Positions 22,611-32,669 of a DNA stretch of 64,000 bases are shown here, one piece after another. The translations under genes were made by a program, and so were the position numbers. Position 1 is the first letter of the stretch. Each line of letters opens with the position of its first letter. Origin of the DNA: Methylocystis sp. (lineage in GTDB: Bacteria > Pseudomonadota > Alphaproteobacteria > Rhizobiales > Beijerinckiaceae); NCBI GenBank assembly GCA_024506175.1, contig JAMBEQ010000266.1, positions 1-64,000 on the forward strand. Reading direction: 5' to 3'. A model generated the notes under the pieces. That model was given only the letters and a program-made list of their open reading frames with translations. It searched no databases and was not told the DNA's origin.

Positions 22611-24631
22611 ACACGGGCAGCATGGTGCGCGTCATCTCGGGCAAGAACGCGCTCAGCTTCACGAGCTTCGGCGCCGACGCCGAGAAGACGTTCGGCAACG
22701 GCATGCGGTGCCATCCGCTGCTTCGTTCCGAGCGCTTCTTCGAGCTGGATCGGAGGCAGAGCTACTACGAGTGCACGAACCACGACACGAAGCTCTACGA
22801 CTTCGACGGGCGCGTCATCTCGAACCCGCGCGCAGCGATCCCGCTCATCTCGGGCGAGAAGGCTCCGTTCTACGTCCCGCTCAAGATGCGAAGGCCGTCG
22901 AGTCCGATGCGGCTCGCGAAGGTCATCACCGACAGCTTCACGAACCTGCTCTTCGGCGAGGACCGCTTTCCGATCTTCCGCTGCGAGGCGGACGCCGACA
23001 CCGAAGACTTCGTGAACACGATCGTCAAGGTCGGCGAGCTGCCCACGAAGATGATCCAGCTCCGCAACATGGGCGGATCGATGGGCTCGGTCGGCATGTC
23101 GTGGTCGTGGAAGGACGGGCGCCCGAACTTCGCCATCCACAACGCCAAGCACCTCTTCGTGCACGGCTGGGCGGACCGCGATCGACTCCTGCCGCGGCAC
23201 GTGAGCGAAGTCTATCTCTACTCGGACAAGGACTTCTGGAACGGCAAGGAGTTCACGACGCAGTGGTGGTGGCACCGCCGCGACTGGACGCCGAACGCGG
23301 ACATCGTCTTCAAGCCGTGTCCGTTCGAGGAGAAGATCGAGCCGTTCTGGGTGCCCGACGTCGAGAAGAGCTACGTGCACAACGACGGCGTCACGCACTT
23401 CGAGTGGTTCCAAAACCTGCCGTGCGAGGAGCCCGAGGGCATCCCCGACTACGACGGGCTCTACGACGTCTTCGAGTCGCTCGACTTGCTCATGAGCGTC
23501 GTCACGCGCGGCGCGACGCTCAACCTCGATCCGACGCTCATCCTCAAGATGGACGCGGCTCAGGTCGCGAAGATGGGCATCAAGAAGGGAAGCGACAACG
23601 CGCTCGTCGTCGGCACCGAAGGCGACGCGTCGTATATGGAACTTCAAGGCGAGGGCATCAAGGCGGGCCTCGATCTCGTCAATGCAAAGAGGCGCTTCGC
23701 GCTCGAAACCGCGCAGTGCGTGGTGCCCGATCCGAACGAGGTCGCCGCGACGGGCGTGTCGAGCGTCGCCATCAAGGCGATGTACGCGCCGATGGTCGGT
23801 AAGACGAACGTGCTCCGCGAGCAGTACGGGCGCGGGATGAAGCACGTGCTCGAAGTGATGACGGAGGTTGCGCGCTCGAACCTCTCGACGCCGATGTTCG
23901 AGCGGCAGTTCGACGACGACGGCAACGAGCTGAAGGACGACGAGGGGCGCCCGGTGCTCGTGCCGGTGCAGATCACGCTCAAGCTCCCGCCGAAGGTCGA
24001 GAAGCTCGACGTGCCGAAGCCGAAGCCTCCGCCGCCGAAGCCTCCGATGAATCCGATGCTGCCGCCGGATCATCCGATGCAGCCGAAGCCCGACGAGGAA
24101 GAGGACGAGAGCAGCAGCAACGACGAGGACACGACGATCGATCCCGAGGACGATCCGAAGGGAGCGGCCGAGCAGGCGAAGGACAAGGCCGAAGCGCAGA
24201 AGCCGATCGTCAAGACGACCGAGCGTACGCCGGGCAAGGGCGAAGAGGTCGACCCGAAGTGGGGCGCGTACTTCCAAGCGACGCCCGACGATCTCGGCAA
24301 GGCGGCGACGGCGCTGCAGGCGGCGAACGGTGGCAAGGCGTTCGTCTCGCAACAGACGAGCACCGAGTGGATGGCGCAGTTCATGGGCGTCGATCCCAAC
24401 GAGGAGTGGAAGCGCGTCAACTCGATGTCGCAGCAAGATCAGCAGCACGAGAAGGACATGGCGAACCCGCCGACCATCGGCGGAGCCGTGCAGCATCCGC
24501 ATCAGCTCCCGCCGGGCGCGAAGCCGAAGGGACCGCCGGGCGCTCCGGGCGCTCCTCCGGGCGCGGGCGGCGCTCCCCCGATGCCGAAGCCGGGCGGACC
24601 GTTCGGCAAGCCGCCGGACCAGGATGGCTAA
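22607..24631 (+). CDS. Portal protein
   Basis: Portal-like architecture and position; LYDVFESLDLLMSVVTRGATLNLDP...ALETAQCVVPDPNEVA. Confidence 0.8.
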   Translation: MNTGSMVRVISGKNALSFTSFGADAEKTFGNGMRCHPLLRSERFFELDRRQSYYECTNHDTKLYDFDGRVISNPRAAIPLISGEKAPFYVPLKMRRPSSPMRLAKVITDSFTNLLFGEDRFPIFRCEADADTEDFVNTIVKVGELPTKMIQLRNMGGSMGSVGMSWSWKDGRPNFAIHNAKHLFVHGWADRDRLLPRHVSEVYLYSDKDFWNGKEFTTQWWWHRRDWTPNADIVFKPCPFEEKIEPFWVPDVEKSYVHNDGVTHFEWFQNLPCEEPEGIPDYDGLYDVFESLDLLMSVVTRGATLNLDPTLILKMDAAQVAKMGIKKGSDNALVVGTEGDASYMELQGEGIKAGLDLVNAKRRFALETAQCVVPDPNEVAATGVSSVAIKAMYAPMVGKTNVLREQYGRGMKHVLEVMTEVARSNLSTPMFERQFDDDGNELKDDEGRPVLVPVQITLKLPPKVEKLDVPKPKPPPPKPPMNPMLPPDHPMQPKPDEEEDESSSNDEDTTIDPEDDPKGAAEQAKDKAEAQKPIVKTTERTPGKGEEVDPKWGAYFQATPDDLGKAATALQAANGGKAFVSQQTSTEWMAQFMGVDPNEEWKRVNSMSQQDQQHEKDMANPPTIGGAVQHPHQLPPGAKPKGPPGAPGAPPGAGGAPPMPKPGGPFGKPPDQDG

Positions 24632-24800
24632 GCATCAGTACGTGTCGACGGCGTGCCTGCACGACCGGCATCGTGAGTGCCGGCGCACGTGCAAGTTCTG
24701 CGGAACGGGCTGCCTCTGCAAGTGCCACGCGAAGCCGGCGGCTAAGTCGAACGTGATCCACCTCGACACGCGCCGCATGAGGAAGCGGCGCGGACGATGA
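24624..24800 (+). CDS. Small Cys/His zinc-finger protein
   Basis: CLHDRHRECRRTCKFCGTGCLCKCH. Confidence 0.6.
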   Translation: MAKHQYVSTACLHDRHRECRRTCKFCGTGCLCKCHAKPAAKSNVIHLDTRRMRKRRGR

Positions 24801-27800
24801 AGAGCAAGCCGAACCTCCAAGACTTGCGCGACATCCTCAGCGAGAATCGCGCGCAGGCGCTCGCGTACGCGAACCAGGTCGGGACGGGCAACGTGCGCGA
24901 GCTGCTCAAGCTCGCCGAAGCGGACCTGCTCAAGCGCATCGACCGGCTCGGCGTCACGGGTACGTTCACCGAGGCGCACCTGCGCACGATGCTCTCGCAG
25001 GTCAGGCTCGTCACGCAGCAGCTCGTCGACGGCATCTCGACGACGCTCGCCGACGAGAGCGGCACCGTCGCGGAGATGGCGGCGAACGGCACCATCGAAT
25101 ACATGACGCAGGCCGATGAGCTGTTTCGCGGCGTCGGGCAGCAGCCGCTTGCGCTCCGCGAAGCGAGCGTGCTCGACAGCGCGAAGATGGGCGCGAAGGC
25201 GTCGATGCTCCGGCGCATCGCGCTCGCGGGCACCGCGGACGATCCGACCGCCGATCCGACCGCGCACCCCGCGCAGCTCGGCGTGATGCAGCGCTACGGG
25301 CTCAACACGATCGGCGAGTTCGAGAAGATTCTTCGCGTGGGCGTGCTCACGCGCAAGGACATCACCGAGGTCGCGGGCGATCTCACCGAGGCGTCACCGT
25401 TCCTGCGGGGCAAGCCGGCGTTCTGGGCGGAGCGCATCGCGCGTACCGAGATGATGGGCGCGTACAACCGCGCGAGCTGGGAGAGCCAGCGCGAGATCAA
25501 CGATCAAGTCGGCGGCGACATGGTCAAGATCCTCAGCGCGACGTTCGACACGCGCACGGCGGCGGACAGCTACGCGGTGCACGGGCAGATCCGCCGACCC
25601 GACGAGGCGTTCGAGACGTGGTACGGGTTCATGCAACACCCGCCCGCGCGCCCGAACGATCGCGAGGTCGTCGTTCCGCATCGCATCGCGTGGCCGATCC
25701 CGAAGTACCTCGCGTGGAAGACGGAGGACGAGATCGCCGCGCGTTGGAAGTACGACGGGCGCAAGGACGAGATGCCCGAGCGTCCGCTCATGACGACGGT
25801 GGATCTCGGCGAGTTCGGCAAGGAGCCCGAGAAGGAAGAGGAGAGCGCGGCGCCCGAAGAGGTCGAGCCGGGCCCGGCGATCCGCGACGTCATCGCGAAA
25901 GGGCAGATGGCTGAAGCGATCGGCGACGACATGATGCAGGACGTCGGCTTCGCTCCGGGCGAGGCGCCCGACCTCGGCACCGACTTCGATGAGGCGCAGC
26001 AGCTCGCCGACCAGCAAGCGGCCGAAGAGGCGCTCAAGGCGAAGGCGGCAGAGCTGCTCGGGTCGTTCCCCGACGATCCGACGCGGCCCGGGCGGGTGCT
26101 TCATGGGATGCCGTTCGCGAACTCGATGTTCTGGGAGGGCTGGACGTCTGCCGAGCAGGATCTCATCTCGTCGCTCTCGGACGAGCTGATCGAGAAGGAT
26201 GCGACGAAGGAGGTCGACACCGACGAGGTCATCATGAAGGGCCCGTCGATCAACAAGCAGGGCGTCGCGTACGGCATCGAGGACAACATGAAGCCCGGGA
26301 TGGCGATGACGCCCGTGCTCATCCAGAAGGACGGGCTGCTCTACGCGTACTCGGCTCCCGCGGATGTCGTCGGCAAGAAGGCGCTCGGCATCGAGAAGCT
26401 CGACGCGCACGTCGTGAACCTCGACGATCCGGACATCGCGAAAAAGTTCCCGAGCCTGCTCGGACCACCACCGCCGAAGGTGCTGACGGCGGACGAGATC
26501 ATGGCGACGAAGACGGGTGCGCAGAAGGGCTCGAACACGGGCGGCTTCTACAAGGGCGCAGACGGCGTCGAGCGTTACGTCAAGGAGTACAGCGATCCGG
26601 CGCAGGCGCACTGCGAAAACATCGCGAACGCGATCTACCGAAAGCTCGGGCTCGAAGCTCCCGACTCGATGACGTTCGAGAAGGGCGGCAAGACGCTCTA
26701 CGCGCACGCGACGGTGAAGGGCGACACATACGCGTCGACCTCGGACACCGTCACGCGGAAGGACGCGGCGAAGGAGATCCTCAAGGGCTTCGCGGCCGAC
26801 GTCTTCCTCGGCAACCGCGACGTCATCGGCATGAGCAAGGACAACATCTTGCTCACCGACACGGGCGTGCGCCGACTCGACAACGGCGGCTCGCTCCTCA
26901 TGCGCGCGCAGGCGGGACGAAAGCCCGTCTCGGATCTTCATCAGCTCCGCGAGTGGGACGGCTTCTTCAACGGCAGCGTGAACACCTACGCGAGCGTGCT
27001 CGACGAGGCGGGCGTGAAGACGCACGCCGACATGAAGAAGCAGCTCGTCAAGGGCATCAAGGACATCCTGAAGCTCCGCGACGACGAGGGCGGCTTCTAC
27101 AAGCTCGTCGACAAGCTCGCGCCGACGATGGCCGACAAGGATCGTCGCGACGTCGCCGAGATGCTCGAAACGCGCGCGACGCTCCTCGAAGAGAAGCTCA
27201 AGATCCTCAACAAGCGCGTCGTGAAGCCGAAGCCGAAGCCGATCGCGCTCGAACCCGGCAAGTGGGGCCCGACTGCGACGACGACGTTCGAGGAGCTGCT
27301 CAAGCAGCCGAAGAAGCCCGAGCCGGCGAACTCGCCGACGCGCACGCCGAACGGCAAGAGCGTCGCGCAGTACCTCGACGACGCGCGGCGCGCGGTCAGC
27401 AATCTGAACGGAAACCAGCGGCAAGCGATCCGAACCTTCACGGGCAGCGAGTACGGGCGCATCCGCAGCGCGGGACGCATGACGCGCGAGGAGTATGAGC
27501 GCTCGGGCGGCTACGACTACGATCGCTATCGAGCGATGGCGGAGCACGTCGAGACCGGCTTTGACGCGGTGCCCGAAGATCAGCGCGTGCAGGGCATCGT
27601 CTACCGCGGCATGCTCGTGCCGCGCGCGGTTGCGAACACGATGCTCGCGCAGAACGATCGGCCGCACCTGCCGGGTCTCGGGGCGATGTTCTCTACGGCG
27701 CGCGACACGAGCCCGGCGAAGGGCTTCCTCAACAACGGCACGGGCGACACGCACGTCTTCATGGTCATCAAGCAGCGTCGCGGCGTCGCGATCGAGACGA

Positions 27801-28003
27801 TCAGCGGCATCGACACCGAGCATGAGGTGCTGATGAGCGGACGCACGCGTTGCCGGTTGACGGATCACTACATCGTCGAGGACATGGACGGGAATCGAAA
27901 CGTGCTCGTCCTTCATCTCGAAGAGGTGCTCGACGACGCCGACCTCACGGGCACCGCGAAGCCGAAGCGCACGCGCAAGAAGAAGGAACCGCCGACGCCA
28001 TGA
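24797..28003 (+). CDS. MuF-like head protein fused to a kinase-like (HipA-like) segment and a C-terminal ADP-ribosyltransferase
   Basis: FWAERIARTEMMGAYNRAS MuF segment; GGFYKGADGVERYVKEY / FLGNRDVIGMSKDNILL...RRLDNGGSLL kinase-like motifs; YRGM, MFSTARDTSPAKGF, DTEHEVLM R-S-E ART motifs. Confidence 0.75.
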   Translation: MKSKPNLQDLRDILSENRAQALAYANQVGTGNVRELLKLAEADLLKRIDRLGVTGTFTEAHLRTMLSQVRLVTQQLVDGISTTLADESGTVAEMAANGTIEYMTQADELFRGVGQQPLALREASVLDSAKMGAKASMLRRIALAGTADDPTADPTAHPAQLGVMQRYGLNTIGEFEKILRVGVLTRKDITEVAGDLTEASPFLRGKPAFWAERIARTEMMGAYNRASWESQREINDQVGGDMVKILSATFDTRTAADSYAVHGQIRRPDEAFETWYGFMQHPPARPNDREVVVPHRIAWPIPKYLAWKTEDEIAARWKYDGRKDEMPERPLMTTVDLGEFGKEPEKEEESAAPEEVEPGPAIRDVIAKGQMAEAIGDDMMQDVGFAPGEAPDLGTDFDEAQQLADQQAAEEALKAKAAELLGSFPDDPTRPGRVLHGMPFANSMFWEGWTSAEQDLISSLSDELIEKDATKEVDTDEVIMKGPSINKQGVAYGIEDNMKPGMAMTPVLIQKDGLLYAYSAPADVVGKKALGIEKLDAHVVNLDDPDIAKKFPSLLGPPPPKVLTADEIMATKTGAQKGSNTGGFYKGADGVERYVKEYSDPAQAHCENIANAIYRKLGLEAPDSMTFEKGGKTLYAHATVKGDTYASTSDTVTRKDAAKEILKGFAADVFLGNRDVIGMSKDNILLTDTGVRRLDNGGSLLMRAQAGRKPVSDLHQLREWDGFFNGSVNTYASVLDEAGVKTHADMKKQLVKGIKDILKLRDDEGGFYKLVDKLAPTMADKDRRDVAEMLETRATLLEEKLKILNKRVVKPKPKPIALEPGKWGPTATTTFEELLKQPKKPEPANSPTRTPNGKSVAQYLDDARRAVSNLNGNQRQAIRTFTGSEYGRIRSAGRMTREEYERSGGYDYDRYRAMAEHVETGFDAVPEDQRVQGIVYRGMLVPRAVANTMLAQNDRPHLPGLGAMFSTARDTSPAKGFLNNGTGDTHVFMVIKQRRGVAIETISGIDTEHEVLMSGRTRCRLTDHYIVEDMDGNRNVLVLHLEEVLDDADLTGTAKPKRTRKKKEPPTP

Positions 28004-28389
28004 AACCGAACCCGCTCGCCGCGCTCGACATCCCCGCGAACTGGCCGAAGACGGGCACGCTCCCGAACGGCAAGAAGATCGATCTCAAGGAAGCGTGGCA
28101 GACGATGAGCCACGCGGGCATCGCGATGATCGCGGTCGACGTCCCGGGCCAGGGCTCAGCGCATCCGTGGCGGAACGTCGACGGGCTCGACGACTTCGAG
28201 CTGGATCCGGACGTCGAGGGATCGCTCTCGCGCGAGGAGCTGGAATCGAACGGCGTCTTCGATTCGACGCTCGAAGGCTGGGCGCGCGATGAGCATGGGA
28301 TTCGGCTCGATCTCTCGAAGGACGACGCCGACACGCGCGCGATCCGAGGCGACGCGTACCGGCGCTACCTCGCCGAAACGGAGTGGTGA
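28000..28389 (+). CDS. Hypothetical protein
   Basis: ATG overlaps the upstream stop. Confidence 0.55.
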   Translation: MKPNPLAALDIPANWPKTGTLPNGKKIDLKEAWQTMSHAGIAMIAVDVPGQGSAHPWRNVDGLDDFELDPDVEGSLSREELESNGVFDSTLEGWARDEHGIRLDLSKDDADTRAIRGDAYRRYLAETEW

Positions 28390-31268: not shown

Positions 31269-32669
31269 ATGGCAGGTTCCAATCTCGTTCTGGGCATCCC
31301 GCCCGCGGTGCTCGATCTCAACCAGAAGGGGCTCATCGAGCGCGCCTTCCACGACGGGCTCTTCCCGAACCTCGCGTACCGCGCAGAGGCTCTCGCGGAG
31401 GAGTGGCCGGCGAACACCGGAACCGAGATGTTCATGTCTCGGCCGGGCCTGCTCACGCCGATCGTGCAGCCGCTCACGCCGGGCGCCGATCCGTCGCCGC
31501 AGGCGGTGCCGTTCGAGCAGTGGAGCGCGCAGCTTCAGCAGTTCAGCGGCGCGGTCGACACGCACATCCCGACGTCGACGACCGCGAGCGCGAACCTCTT
31601 CCTGCGCAACATCCATCAGCTCGGACTGCAGGCCGGGCAGAGCATCAACCGCATCGCGCGCGACCAGCTCTTCCAGAAGTACCTGGAAGGGCAGACGGTG
31701 CTCACGGCGGCGACGCAGACGACCGACACGCAGCTCTCGGTCGCGTCGCTCTCGGGCTTCGTCGAGGTCATCGTGCCGGGCACGAACGTCAAGCCGCAGC
31801 CGGTCTCGTCGGCGAACCCGCTGACGGTCAAGCTCGGGGCGACGGGCTCGGTGACGGTCTCGGTCGTCGGCTTCCAGCCGAACGATCCGCAAGTGCCGCT
31901 CGGTCCGGGCATCCTGCTCCTCAGCGGGCAGGTCGGCTCGGTCATCGCGACGCGCTCGCTCGTCAAGAGCATCTACGCGCCGCGCATCATCCGCTCCGGC
32001 GGCGGCGCGACGGTCGACGGCATCACGTCGTCGAACACGGTGGCGCTGCAGGACGTCATCAACGCGGTCGCGCAGCTCCGGCGCGCGAACGTGCAGCCGC
32101 ACCCGGACGGCTTCTACCACGCGCACATCTCGCCGGTCGCGAACAGCCAGTTCTTCGCGGATCCCGTGTTCCAGCGGCTCAACCAGTCGCTCCCCGAGCA
32201 CGTGATCTACAAGGAAGGCTTCATCGGCACGATCTCGGGCGTCATGTTCTTCATGAACAACGAGGCGCCGGAGAGCACGAACTCGGGCACGCTCATCGCG
32301 ACGGGCAACAACGCCAAGTTCGCGAGCGAGCTGCTCGCCGATGCGGTCAACGAGTCGAGCATCAACATCGGGCGCATCATCGTCACCGGGCGCGGCTCGG
32401 TCTACGAGAAGTACCTGAACGAAGATGCGTTCGTCACCGAGGCCGGGCTCAACGGCAAGGTCGGCGAGTTCGACGTCGTGAACAACAACGTCGCCATCCT
32501 CACCGAGCGCATCCGGCTCGTGCTGCGCGCGCCGCTCGACCGTCTGCAGCAGGTCGTCTCGGCCGCGTGGTCGATCAGCACCTCGTTCCCGGTGCCGAGC
32601 GACATCACCGCGCCGAGCGGGCAGGAGCGCTACAAGCGCGCCATCGTCATCGAGCACGCGCTCGGCTGA
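31269..32669 (+). CDS. Major capsid protein
   Basis: Position between scaffold and neck genes; length; HK97-type sequence character; strong GGAG SD. Confidence 0.75.
   Translation: MAGSNLVLGIPPAVLDLNQKGLIERAFHDGLFPNLAYRAEALAEEWPANTGTEMFMSRPGLLTPIVQPLTPGADPSPQAVPFEQWSAQLQQFSGAVDTHIPTSTTASANLFLRNIHQLGLQAGQSINRIARDQLFQKYLEGQTVLTAATQTTDTQLSVASLSGFVEVIVPGTNVKPQPVSSANPLTVKLGATGSVTVSVVGFQPNDPQVPLGPGILLLSGQVGSVIATRSLVKSIYAPRIIRSGGGATVDGITSSNTVALQDVINAVAQLRRANVQPHPDGFYHAHISPVANSQFFADPVFQRLNQSLPEHVIYKEGFIGTISGVMFFMNNEAPESTNSGTLIATGNNAKFASELLADAVNESSINIGRIIVTGRGSVYEKYLNEDAFVTEAGLNGKVGEFDVVNNNVAILTERIRLVLRAPLDRLQQVVSAAWSISTSFPVPSDITAPSGQERYKRAIVIEHALG

What the first reader, a model, noticed from the sequence alone, without database searches (positions are those of the whole stretch)
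24797..28003. Three-part head protein: MuF, kinase-like and ADP-ribosyltransferase
Directly visible: MuF-type segment (FLRGKPAFWAERIARTEMMGAYNRASWES), then a segment with phosphotransferase-like spacing (GSNTGGFYKGADGVERYVKEYSDPAQAHCENIANAIYRKLG ... AADVFLGNRDVIGMSKDNILLTDTGVRRLDNGGSLL), then an ART with R-S-E motifs (VYRGM / MFSTARDTSPAKGF / DTEHEVLM with an intact ExE). MuF-linked toxins and virion ARTs such as T4 Alt are established. Inference: this protein may be packaged and injected as an ART effector, with the middle domain acting as a second activity or an immunity/regulatory module.
Basis: partly seen in the sequence, partly recalled or inferred. Interest (0 to 1): 0.82.

Follow-up and report, generated by a model that had tools for sequence, protein, structure and literature searches.

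The report
Phage head protein with two enzymes
A phage makes one long protein that joins a capsid part to a protein-kinase-like enzyme and an ADP-ribosyltransferase, so it probably rides in the virus head and modifies host proteins when the phage DNA enters; the kinase belongs to a large, so far unnamed family that keeps appearing next to this kind of transferase in many phages.

Summary
ORF 24797-28003 (+) is one intact 1068-aa frame in the late operon of a myovirus, on a 103,476-bp contig with an exact 127-bp terminal repeat (a complete circular phage). Residues 1-330 are MuF. Residues 556-835 fold as a HipA/CtkA/PI3-kinase-like kinase (AlphaFold pLDDT 92; best PDB matches CtkA, VPS34, LepB, HipA), with every catalytic-type residue intact. 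Residues 855-1045 fold as an R-S-ExE ADP-ribosyltransferase (pLDDT 86; best match Vis). MuF-ART toxins were already known (EFV toxin, Bxa); the kinase was not catalogued in Pfam, NCBIfam or PHROGs. It is a family of hundreds of members. Searching with the kinase alone gave 125 non-redundant ORFs: 69 (76 with weaker hits) also carry the ART, 30 carry MuF, and 17 have MuF-kinase-ART, always in that order. One NUDIX subfamily often sits in the same protein or two genes away. In Yersinia phage fHe-Yen8-01 both the kinase-ART protein and the NUDIX protein are annotated as particle-associated. Most likely this is a virion-packaged, injected two-enzyme effector. Standalone kinases with no ART nearby speak against the kinase being merely the ART's immunity module. 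Packaging, injection, activity and targets are inferred, not shown.

The parts
24797..28003 (+). MuF-kinase-ART protein, 1068 aa, intact
   Evidence: only one ART, one kinase and one MuF match in the whole 103-kb contig
24797..25786 (+). MuF (head morphogenesis) region, residues ~1-330
   Evidence: PF04233 at residues 211-287 E 1.4e-6; PHROG 3517 E 1.4e-9; own MuF profile over residues ~14-313
25787..26461 (+). linker region, residues ~331-555; residues ~480-545 may be a degenerate ParB/sulfiredoxin-like domain (unproven)
   Evidence: by-eye likeness to L012 'NGHYLAGAHLLGEKSVAAHVVD' and Gordonia phage 'DGHHR'; Pfam finds nothing in the window or L012, ParBc_2 E 0.008 only in Gordonia L008
26462..27301 (+). 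HipA/CtkA/PI3K-like kinase domain, residues 556-835: glycine-rich loop GSN 578-580, K596, E607, N673-x-D675, D682-N683, D695-x-G-G
   Evidence: AlphaFold pLDDT 92.3, Foldseek CtkA/VPS34/LepB/HipA, conservation
27287..28000 (+). R-S-ExE ADP-ribosyltransferase domain (modelled on residues 831-1068; R937, S966, E1008, E1010)
   Evidence: AlphaFold pLDDT 85.6, Foldseek Vis/Certhrax/C3, family profile against PDB E 1e-33, Pfam PF03496 in 50/63 relatives
28000..28389 (+). 129-aa acidic ORF (pI 4.55) starting on an ATGA overlap with the effector stop; candidate immunity or partner protein
   Evidence: no family match; role inferred from the small-ORF rule of MuF toxins (PMC5576092)
22574..24631 (+). 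portal protein (SPP1 gp6-like), upstream
   Evidence: PHROG 64 E 1e-4, Pfam SPP1_portal E 2.8e-4
24624..24800 (+). 58-aa Cys/His-rich ORF between portal and effector, overlapping both
   Evidence: C-terminal part of the listed ORF 24330-24800, starting at MAKHQ
31269..32669 (+). major head protein, downstream in the same late operon
   Evidence: PHROG 1357 E 2.4e-16

Best explanation
The ORF encodes a virion-carried, multi-enzyme ('polyvalent') effector. The MuF part seats it in the phage head during assembly. The C-terminal part is an R-S-ExE mono-ADP-ribosyltransferase, probably acting on arginine of host proteins. The middle part is an active kinase of the HipA/CtkA/PI3-kinase fold, acting as a second effector on host proteins or on the same target pathway as the ART. 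Both enter the cell with the DNA and act early in infection, as T4 Alt does. Shown here: intact frame, folds, catalytic-type residues, gene context, and the recurrent kinase-ART (and NUDIX) partnership. Inferred: packaging, injection, enzymatic activity, targets, and protection of the producing cell by the coupled 129-aa acidic protein.
For: Folds: kinase pLDDT 92.3 with CtkA E 1.6e-6, TM 0.55; ART pLDDT 85.6 with Vis E 1e-10, TM 0.6-0.7. Kinase catalytic-type residues in 85 diverse relatives: K596 85/85, E607 84/85, N673 85/85, D675 85/85, N683 84/85, D695 85/85; ART residues in 63: R937 62/63, E1008 61/63, E1010 63/63. Association: a search with the kinase alone gave 125 non-redundant ORFs, 69 with the ART in the same ORF; only 11 further ORFs with this ART among about 14,300 others, most of them in kinase loci; 7 more found by hhalign (above 10% probability, reversed controls at most 5.3%). 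ART and MuF presence change at least 18 and 17 times on the kinase tree, so the pairing is lost or rebuilt repeatedly rather than inherited once. In the 17 triples, kinase and ART divergence correlate (r 0.41, 0/1000 permutations reach it), kinase and MuF do not (r 0.03). Head context: portal, effector, scaffold-like ORF, major head protein. Virion evidence in a relative: the fHe-Yen8-01 kinase-ART protein is annotated 'phage particle associated protein', the NUDIX gene two downstream 'particle associated protein'. Precedent: MuF-ART Bxa is an antibacterial arginine ART (PMC11699363).
Against: No virion proteomics or activity for this protein. The 'particle associated' relative lacks a detected MuF, so its packaging route may differ. 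The window's ART has STA where most relatives have STS (Ala in 5/63 at that position). TM-scores to solved kinases are moderate (0.5-0.57). 46 of 121 kinase ORFs in the tree show no ART, so the two activities are separable.
Confidence: 0.62

Rival explanations
1. The kinase-fold domain is an in-cis regulator of the ART: it phosphorylates or otherwise modifies the ART and keeps it silent (or switches it on), as the kinase-fold enzyme SidJ acts on SidE ARTs in Legionella.
For: In 11 of the 17 triples the two domains are neighbours with an 18-50 residue linker; kinase and ART divergence correlate within the triples; the SidJ precedent is in the literature (PMC6858067).
Against: The kinase occurs without detectable ART, including ~240-aa standalone Rhodopseudomonas proteins with no ART in the fetched loci (up to 6 kb each side), in separate genes in Gordonia phages, and fused to NUDIX without ART. 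The ART can also lie N-terminal (5 ORFs) or far away (400-residue linker).
Confidence: 0.18
2. ART, kinase and NUDIX act in sequence on one substrate: the ART attaches ADP-ribose, and the kinase (and NUDIX where present) further processes the attached ADP-ribose or the nucleotide pool, giving a compound modification or blocking its removal.
For: One NUDIX subfamily is in the same ORF in 14/125 and the same locus in 39/125 kinase ORFs (about 37 after dropping two ordinary chromosomal NUDIX genes), in several orders including MuF-NUDIX-kinase-ART and ART-kinase-NUDIX.
Against: The window phage has no NUDIX of this subfamily; no chemistry is shown; HipA/CtkA-type kinases are protein Ser/Thr kinases (own knowledge).
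Confidence: 0.15
3. A structural head protein whose extra domains have lost activity or serve only in assembly.
For: The MuF part is a head-morphogenesis protein and the gene sits in the head operon.
Against: Catalytic-type residues of both enzymes are kept across very diverged relatives, and the enzyme domains also occur without MuF in most loci.
Confidence: 0.05

Closest known systems
MuF polymorphic toxins (Jamet 2017, PMC5576092), incl. Bxa (PMC11699363) and EFV toxin
   Same: N-terminal MuF, C-terminal ART, head-operon position, small ORF directly downstream
   Different: a full kinase domain sits between MuF and ART; described MuF toxins lie in temperate phages, and the lifestyle of this phage was not determined; 'kinase' has no occurrence in either paper's held text
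Polyvalent proteins (Iyer 2017, PMC5512222)
   Same: several effector domains in one phage-carried polypeptide, ART among the commonest
   Different: their kinase is a Ser/Thr/Tyr-kinase type that has lost the C-terminal lobe; this one keeps a helical C-lobe and lacks a conserved catalytic His; HipA is not mentioned there
T4 Alt
   Same: head-packaged ART of the Alt/VIP2 R-S-E clade, the model for injection (PMC9503650)
   Different: Alt has no MuF and no kinase domain (own knowledge)
CtkA / HipA / PI3K-like kinases (CtkA 3akl, VPS34, LepB 4jw1, HipA 4pu5)
   Same: fold and spacing of catalytic-type residues (K, E, NxD...DN...DxGG)
   Different: 12-17% identity; below the HipA_C gathering score; own family not catalogued in Pfam, NCBIfam or PHROGs
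kinase-ART proteins of ~90-kb phages (fHe-Yen8-01, Jeremy, Touem01, Aeromonas ST4, Mecenats66)
   Same: same kinase family followed by the ART; NUDIX gene nearby
   Different: no MuF detected; longer, different N-terminal parts

Membership tests
MuF polymorphic toxin | N-terminal MuF domain | tested here: met
   PF04233 E 1.4e-6 (0.2 bits under the cut-off), PHROG 3517 E 1.4e-9, own profile
MuF polymorphic toxin | C-terminal enzymatic toxin domain | tested here: met
   ART fold and residues
MuF polymorphic toxin | small ORF directly downstream (presumed immunity) | tested here: met
   129 aa, pI 4.55, ATGA overlap; immunity function itself untested
MuF polymorphic toxin | encoded in a temperate phage | not tested
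   no integrase or repressor search was done; the contig is a circular phage genome
Polyvalent protein | two or more effector domains in one mobile-element polypeptide | tested here: met
   kinase plus ART
Polyvalent protein | transferred into the host with the DNA | not testable with these tools
   only indirect: MuF, head operon, 'particle associated' relative
Polyvalent-protein STY kinase of Iyer 2017 | no C-terminal lobe; insert between a conserved His and Asp | tested here: not met
   helical C-lobe in the model; no invariant or nearly invariant His in 85 relatives
R-S-E (Alt/VIP2-type) ART | ART fold with R, S(T)S and ExE | tested here: met
   R937, S966-T-A, E1008-H-E1010; Foldseek and PDB profile; third Ser of STS is Ala
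R-S-E (Alt/VIP2-type) ART | NAD-dependent transferase activity | not testable with these tools
   needs an assay
HipA family (Pfam HipA_C) | match above the curated score | tested here: not met
   window no match; 9/85 relatives at best E 0.0024
HipA/CtkA/PI3K-like kinase fold | two-lobed kinase fold with ATP Lys, helix-C Glu, catalytic Asp, metal Asn and Asp | tested here: met
   (residue roles assigned by motif alignment; model coordinates could not be measured)

The most novel reading that the evidence does not exclude
ART, this kinase and its NUDIX partner form an unrecognised phage triad, delivered by virions, that together write and shape one compound modification (for example phosphorylated or trimmed ADP-ribose) on host proteins; the window's protein carries two of the three parts on a capsid anchor.
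Probability: 0.15. Interest if true: 0.85.

Novelty: new variant of a known kind. Interest (0 to 1): 0.62.

Why it matters
MuF-linked and head-packaged ARTs are known, but an accompanying kinase family of hundreds of phage and bacterial proteins, tied again and again to this ART and to one NUDIX subfamily, appears not to have been described. It predicts that many phages deliver a phosphorylating as well as an ADP-ribosylating enzyme at the moment of infection, a question that can be tested with isolated phages that carry the pair (Pseudomonas phage Jeremy, Aeromonas phage ST4, Gordonia phages).

Tried and rejected
Viral-contig search with the full window protein: no pattern match; with the kinase alone: one relative, L012. 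PDB search with the single sequence: nothing. PDB sequence search with the kinase profile gave only weak hits (LepB, CtkA among chance ones), so the fold had to come from structure. A degenerate ParB-like domain between MuF and kinase: suggestive by eye, not supported by Pfam. Kinase as a member of the Iyer 2017 polyvalent kinases: rejected (no conserved His, C-lobe present). An immunity role for the kinase: lowered by its occurrence without ART. A NUDIX partner in this phage: not found. My first NUDIX motif was too strict (4 ORFs) and was replaced by a profile. The gene as part of the host chromosome: not supported; no relative in the 60 other genomes searched, 36 of the same genus.

Full report
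What is there. The ORF at 24797-28003 (+) is real and intact: 1068 aa from ATG to stop, with the codon-position G+C pattern of its neighbours. Upstream are a portal protein and a 58-aa Cys/His-rich ORF; downstream are a 129-aa acidic ORF whose ATG overlaps the effector's stop (ATGA), a scaffold-like ORF and the major head protein. The contig is 103,476 bp with an exact 127-bp terminal repeat, so it is a complete circular phage genome that was binned with a bacterial MAG; no relative of the kinase is in the 60 related genomes searched, 36 of them of the same genus. A tail sheath match makes it a myovirus.

MuF. Residues 211-287 match Phage_Mu_F (E 1.4e-6, 0.2 bits under the gathering score) and head-morphogenesis PHROGs (E 1.4e-9). 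An iterated profile finds the same MuF type over residues ~14-313 and over a similar full length in L013, L081 and L092.

Kinase. The middle segment had tblastn matches down to E 3e-19 in unrelated ~90-kb phages whose proteins are partly annotated 'ADP-ribosyltransferase'. An alignment of 11 and then 85 relatives shows a kinase pattern: GSNxGG loop, K596, E607, N673-x-D675, D682-N683 and D695-x-G-G, nearly all invariant. AlphaFold gave pLDDT 92.3; Foldseek ranks CtkA, VPS34, LepB and HipA. Searches of Pfam, NCBIfam and PHROGs do not name the family (HipA_C only weakly, in 9/85).

ART. The window's own ART is only marginal in Pfam, but 50 of 63 relatives match PF03496, the profile hits VIP2, iota, CDTa, Vis and C3 in the PDB, and the model (pLDDT 85.6) matches Vis and other R-S-E toxins. 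R937, S966 and E1008-H-E1010 are in place; the third letter of STS is Ala, as in 4 other relatives.

How the parts go together elsewhere. Searching with the kinase alone found 456 related stretches in viral contigs (80 kept) and 67 in bacterial genomes. Reduced at 80% identity to 125 ORFs, 69 carry the ART, 30 MuF, 17 all three; hhalign adds 7 likely ARTs above 10% probability against reversed controls of at most 5.3%. In all 17 triples the order is MuF, kinase, ART. The ART was found outside kinase ORFs in only 11 of about 14,300 other ORFs, most of them in kinase loci. On a kinase tree, ART presence changes at least 18 times and MuF 17. Kinase and ART divergence correlate in the triples (r 0.41, 0/1000 permutations) but only weakly over 65 pairs (r 0.14, p 0.011); kinase and MuF do not. 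So the enzymes travel together more than the kinase does with the anchor. Checks by Pfam on whole proteins agree (28/37 ADPrib_exo_Tox, 14/37 Phage_Mu_F, 4/37 NUDIX).

A third partner. One NUDIX subfamily is in the same ORF as the kinase in 14/125 and in the same locus in 39/125 cases (about 37 after removing two ordinary chromosomal NUDIX genes). In Yersinia phage fHe-Yen8-01 the kinase-ART protein and the NUDIX protein are both annotated as particle-associated. The window phage has no such NUDIX.

Mechanism. The best-supported reading is a virion-packaged effector with two separate enzymes, injected with the DNA. Shown: frame, folds, residues, context, partnership. Inferred: packaging, injection, activity, targets. 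The kinase also lives alone (Rhodopseudomonas, ~240 aa), in separate genes from the ART (Gordonia phages), and fused to NUDIX without ART, which argues against a pure ART-immunity role. The 129-aa acidic ORF fits the small-ORF rule of MuF toxins and most triples also have a short ORF next, though these are not homologous to it.

Against what is known. MuF toxins with ART ends are established: Jamet 2017 (PMC5576092), Bxa (PMC11699363), and the surveys PMC9503650 and PMC5512222. None of the papers I could read names a HipA/CtkA/PI3K-like kinase with them, and the polyvalent kinases of PMC5512222 are a different type. The library holds open-licence papers only, so earlier description elsewhere cannot be excluded. 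I therefore call it a new variant of a known kind.

Noticed in passing
window contig G000:C266, 1-103476: Exact 127-bp direct repeat at the two ends: a complete circular ~103-kb myovirus genome binned in a bacterial MAG.
   Followed up: yes
L002-L005, L007, L010, L035, L037, L120, L131, L136 and others: One NUDIX subfamily accompanies the kinase/ART, in the same protein in several orders (five NUDIX copies in L136) or two genes downstream.
   Followed up: partly
L101, L102, L107, L111, L115, L126, L129, L132 (Rhodopseudomonas): Kinase domains alone or with one extension, with no ART found in the fetched loci (up to 6 kb each side).
   Followed up: partly
L131, L133, L138, L143 (Pseudomonas syringae group): Bacterial-genome proteins with the order ART-kinase-NUDIX; role and secretion not studied here.
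   Followed up: no
L008 (Gordonia phage Mareelih), 4659-10191: Kinase and ART are separate genes (gp77 and gp79) right after the portal gene.
   Followed up: no
L012, 3138-5499: The closest relative (60% in the kinase) has MuF and kinase in two overlapping frames: a frame change, split genes or a sequencing error.
   Followed up: no
L081, 3692-9607: A MuF protein with two kinase copies in a row and a weak ART at the end.
   Followed up: no
window 24624-24800: 58-aa Cys/His-rich ORF overlapping both the portal stop and the effector start.
   Followed up: no
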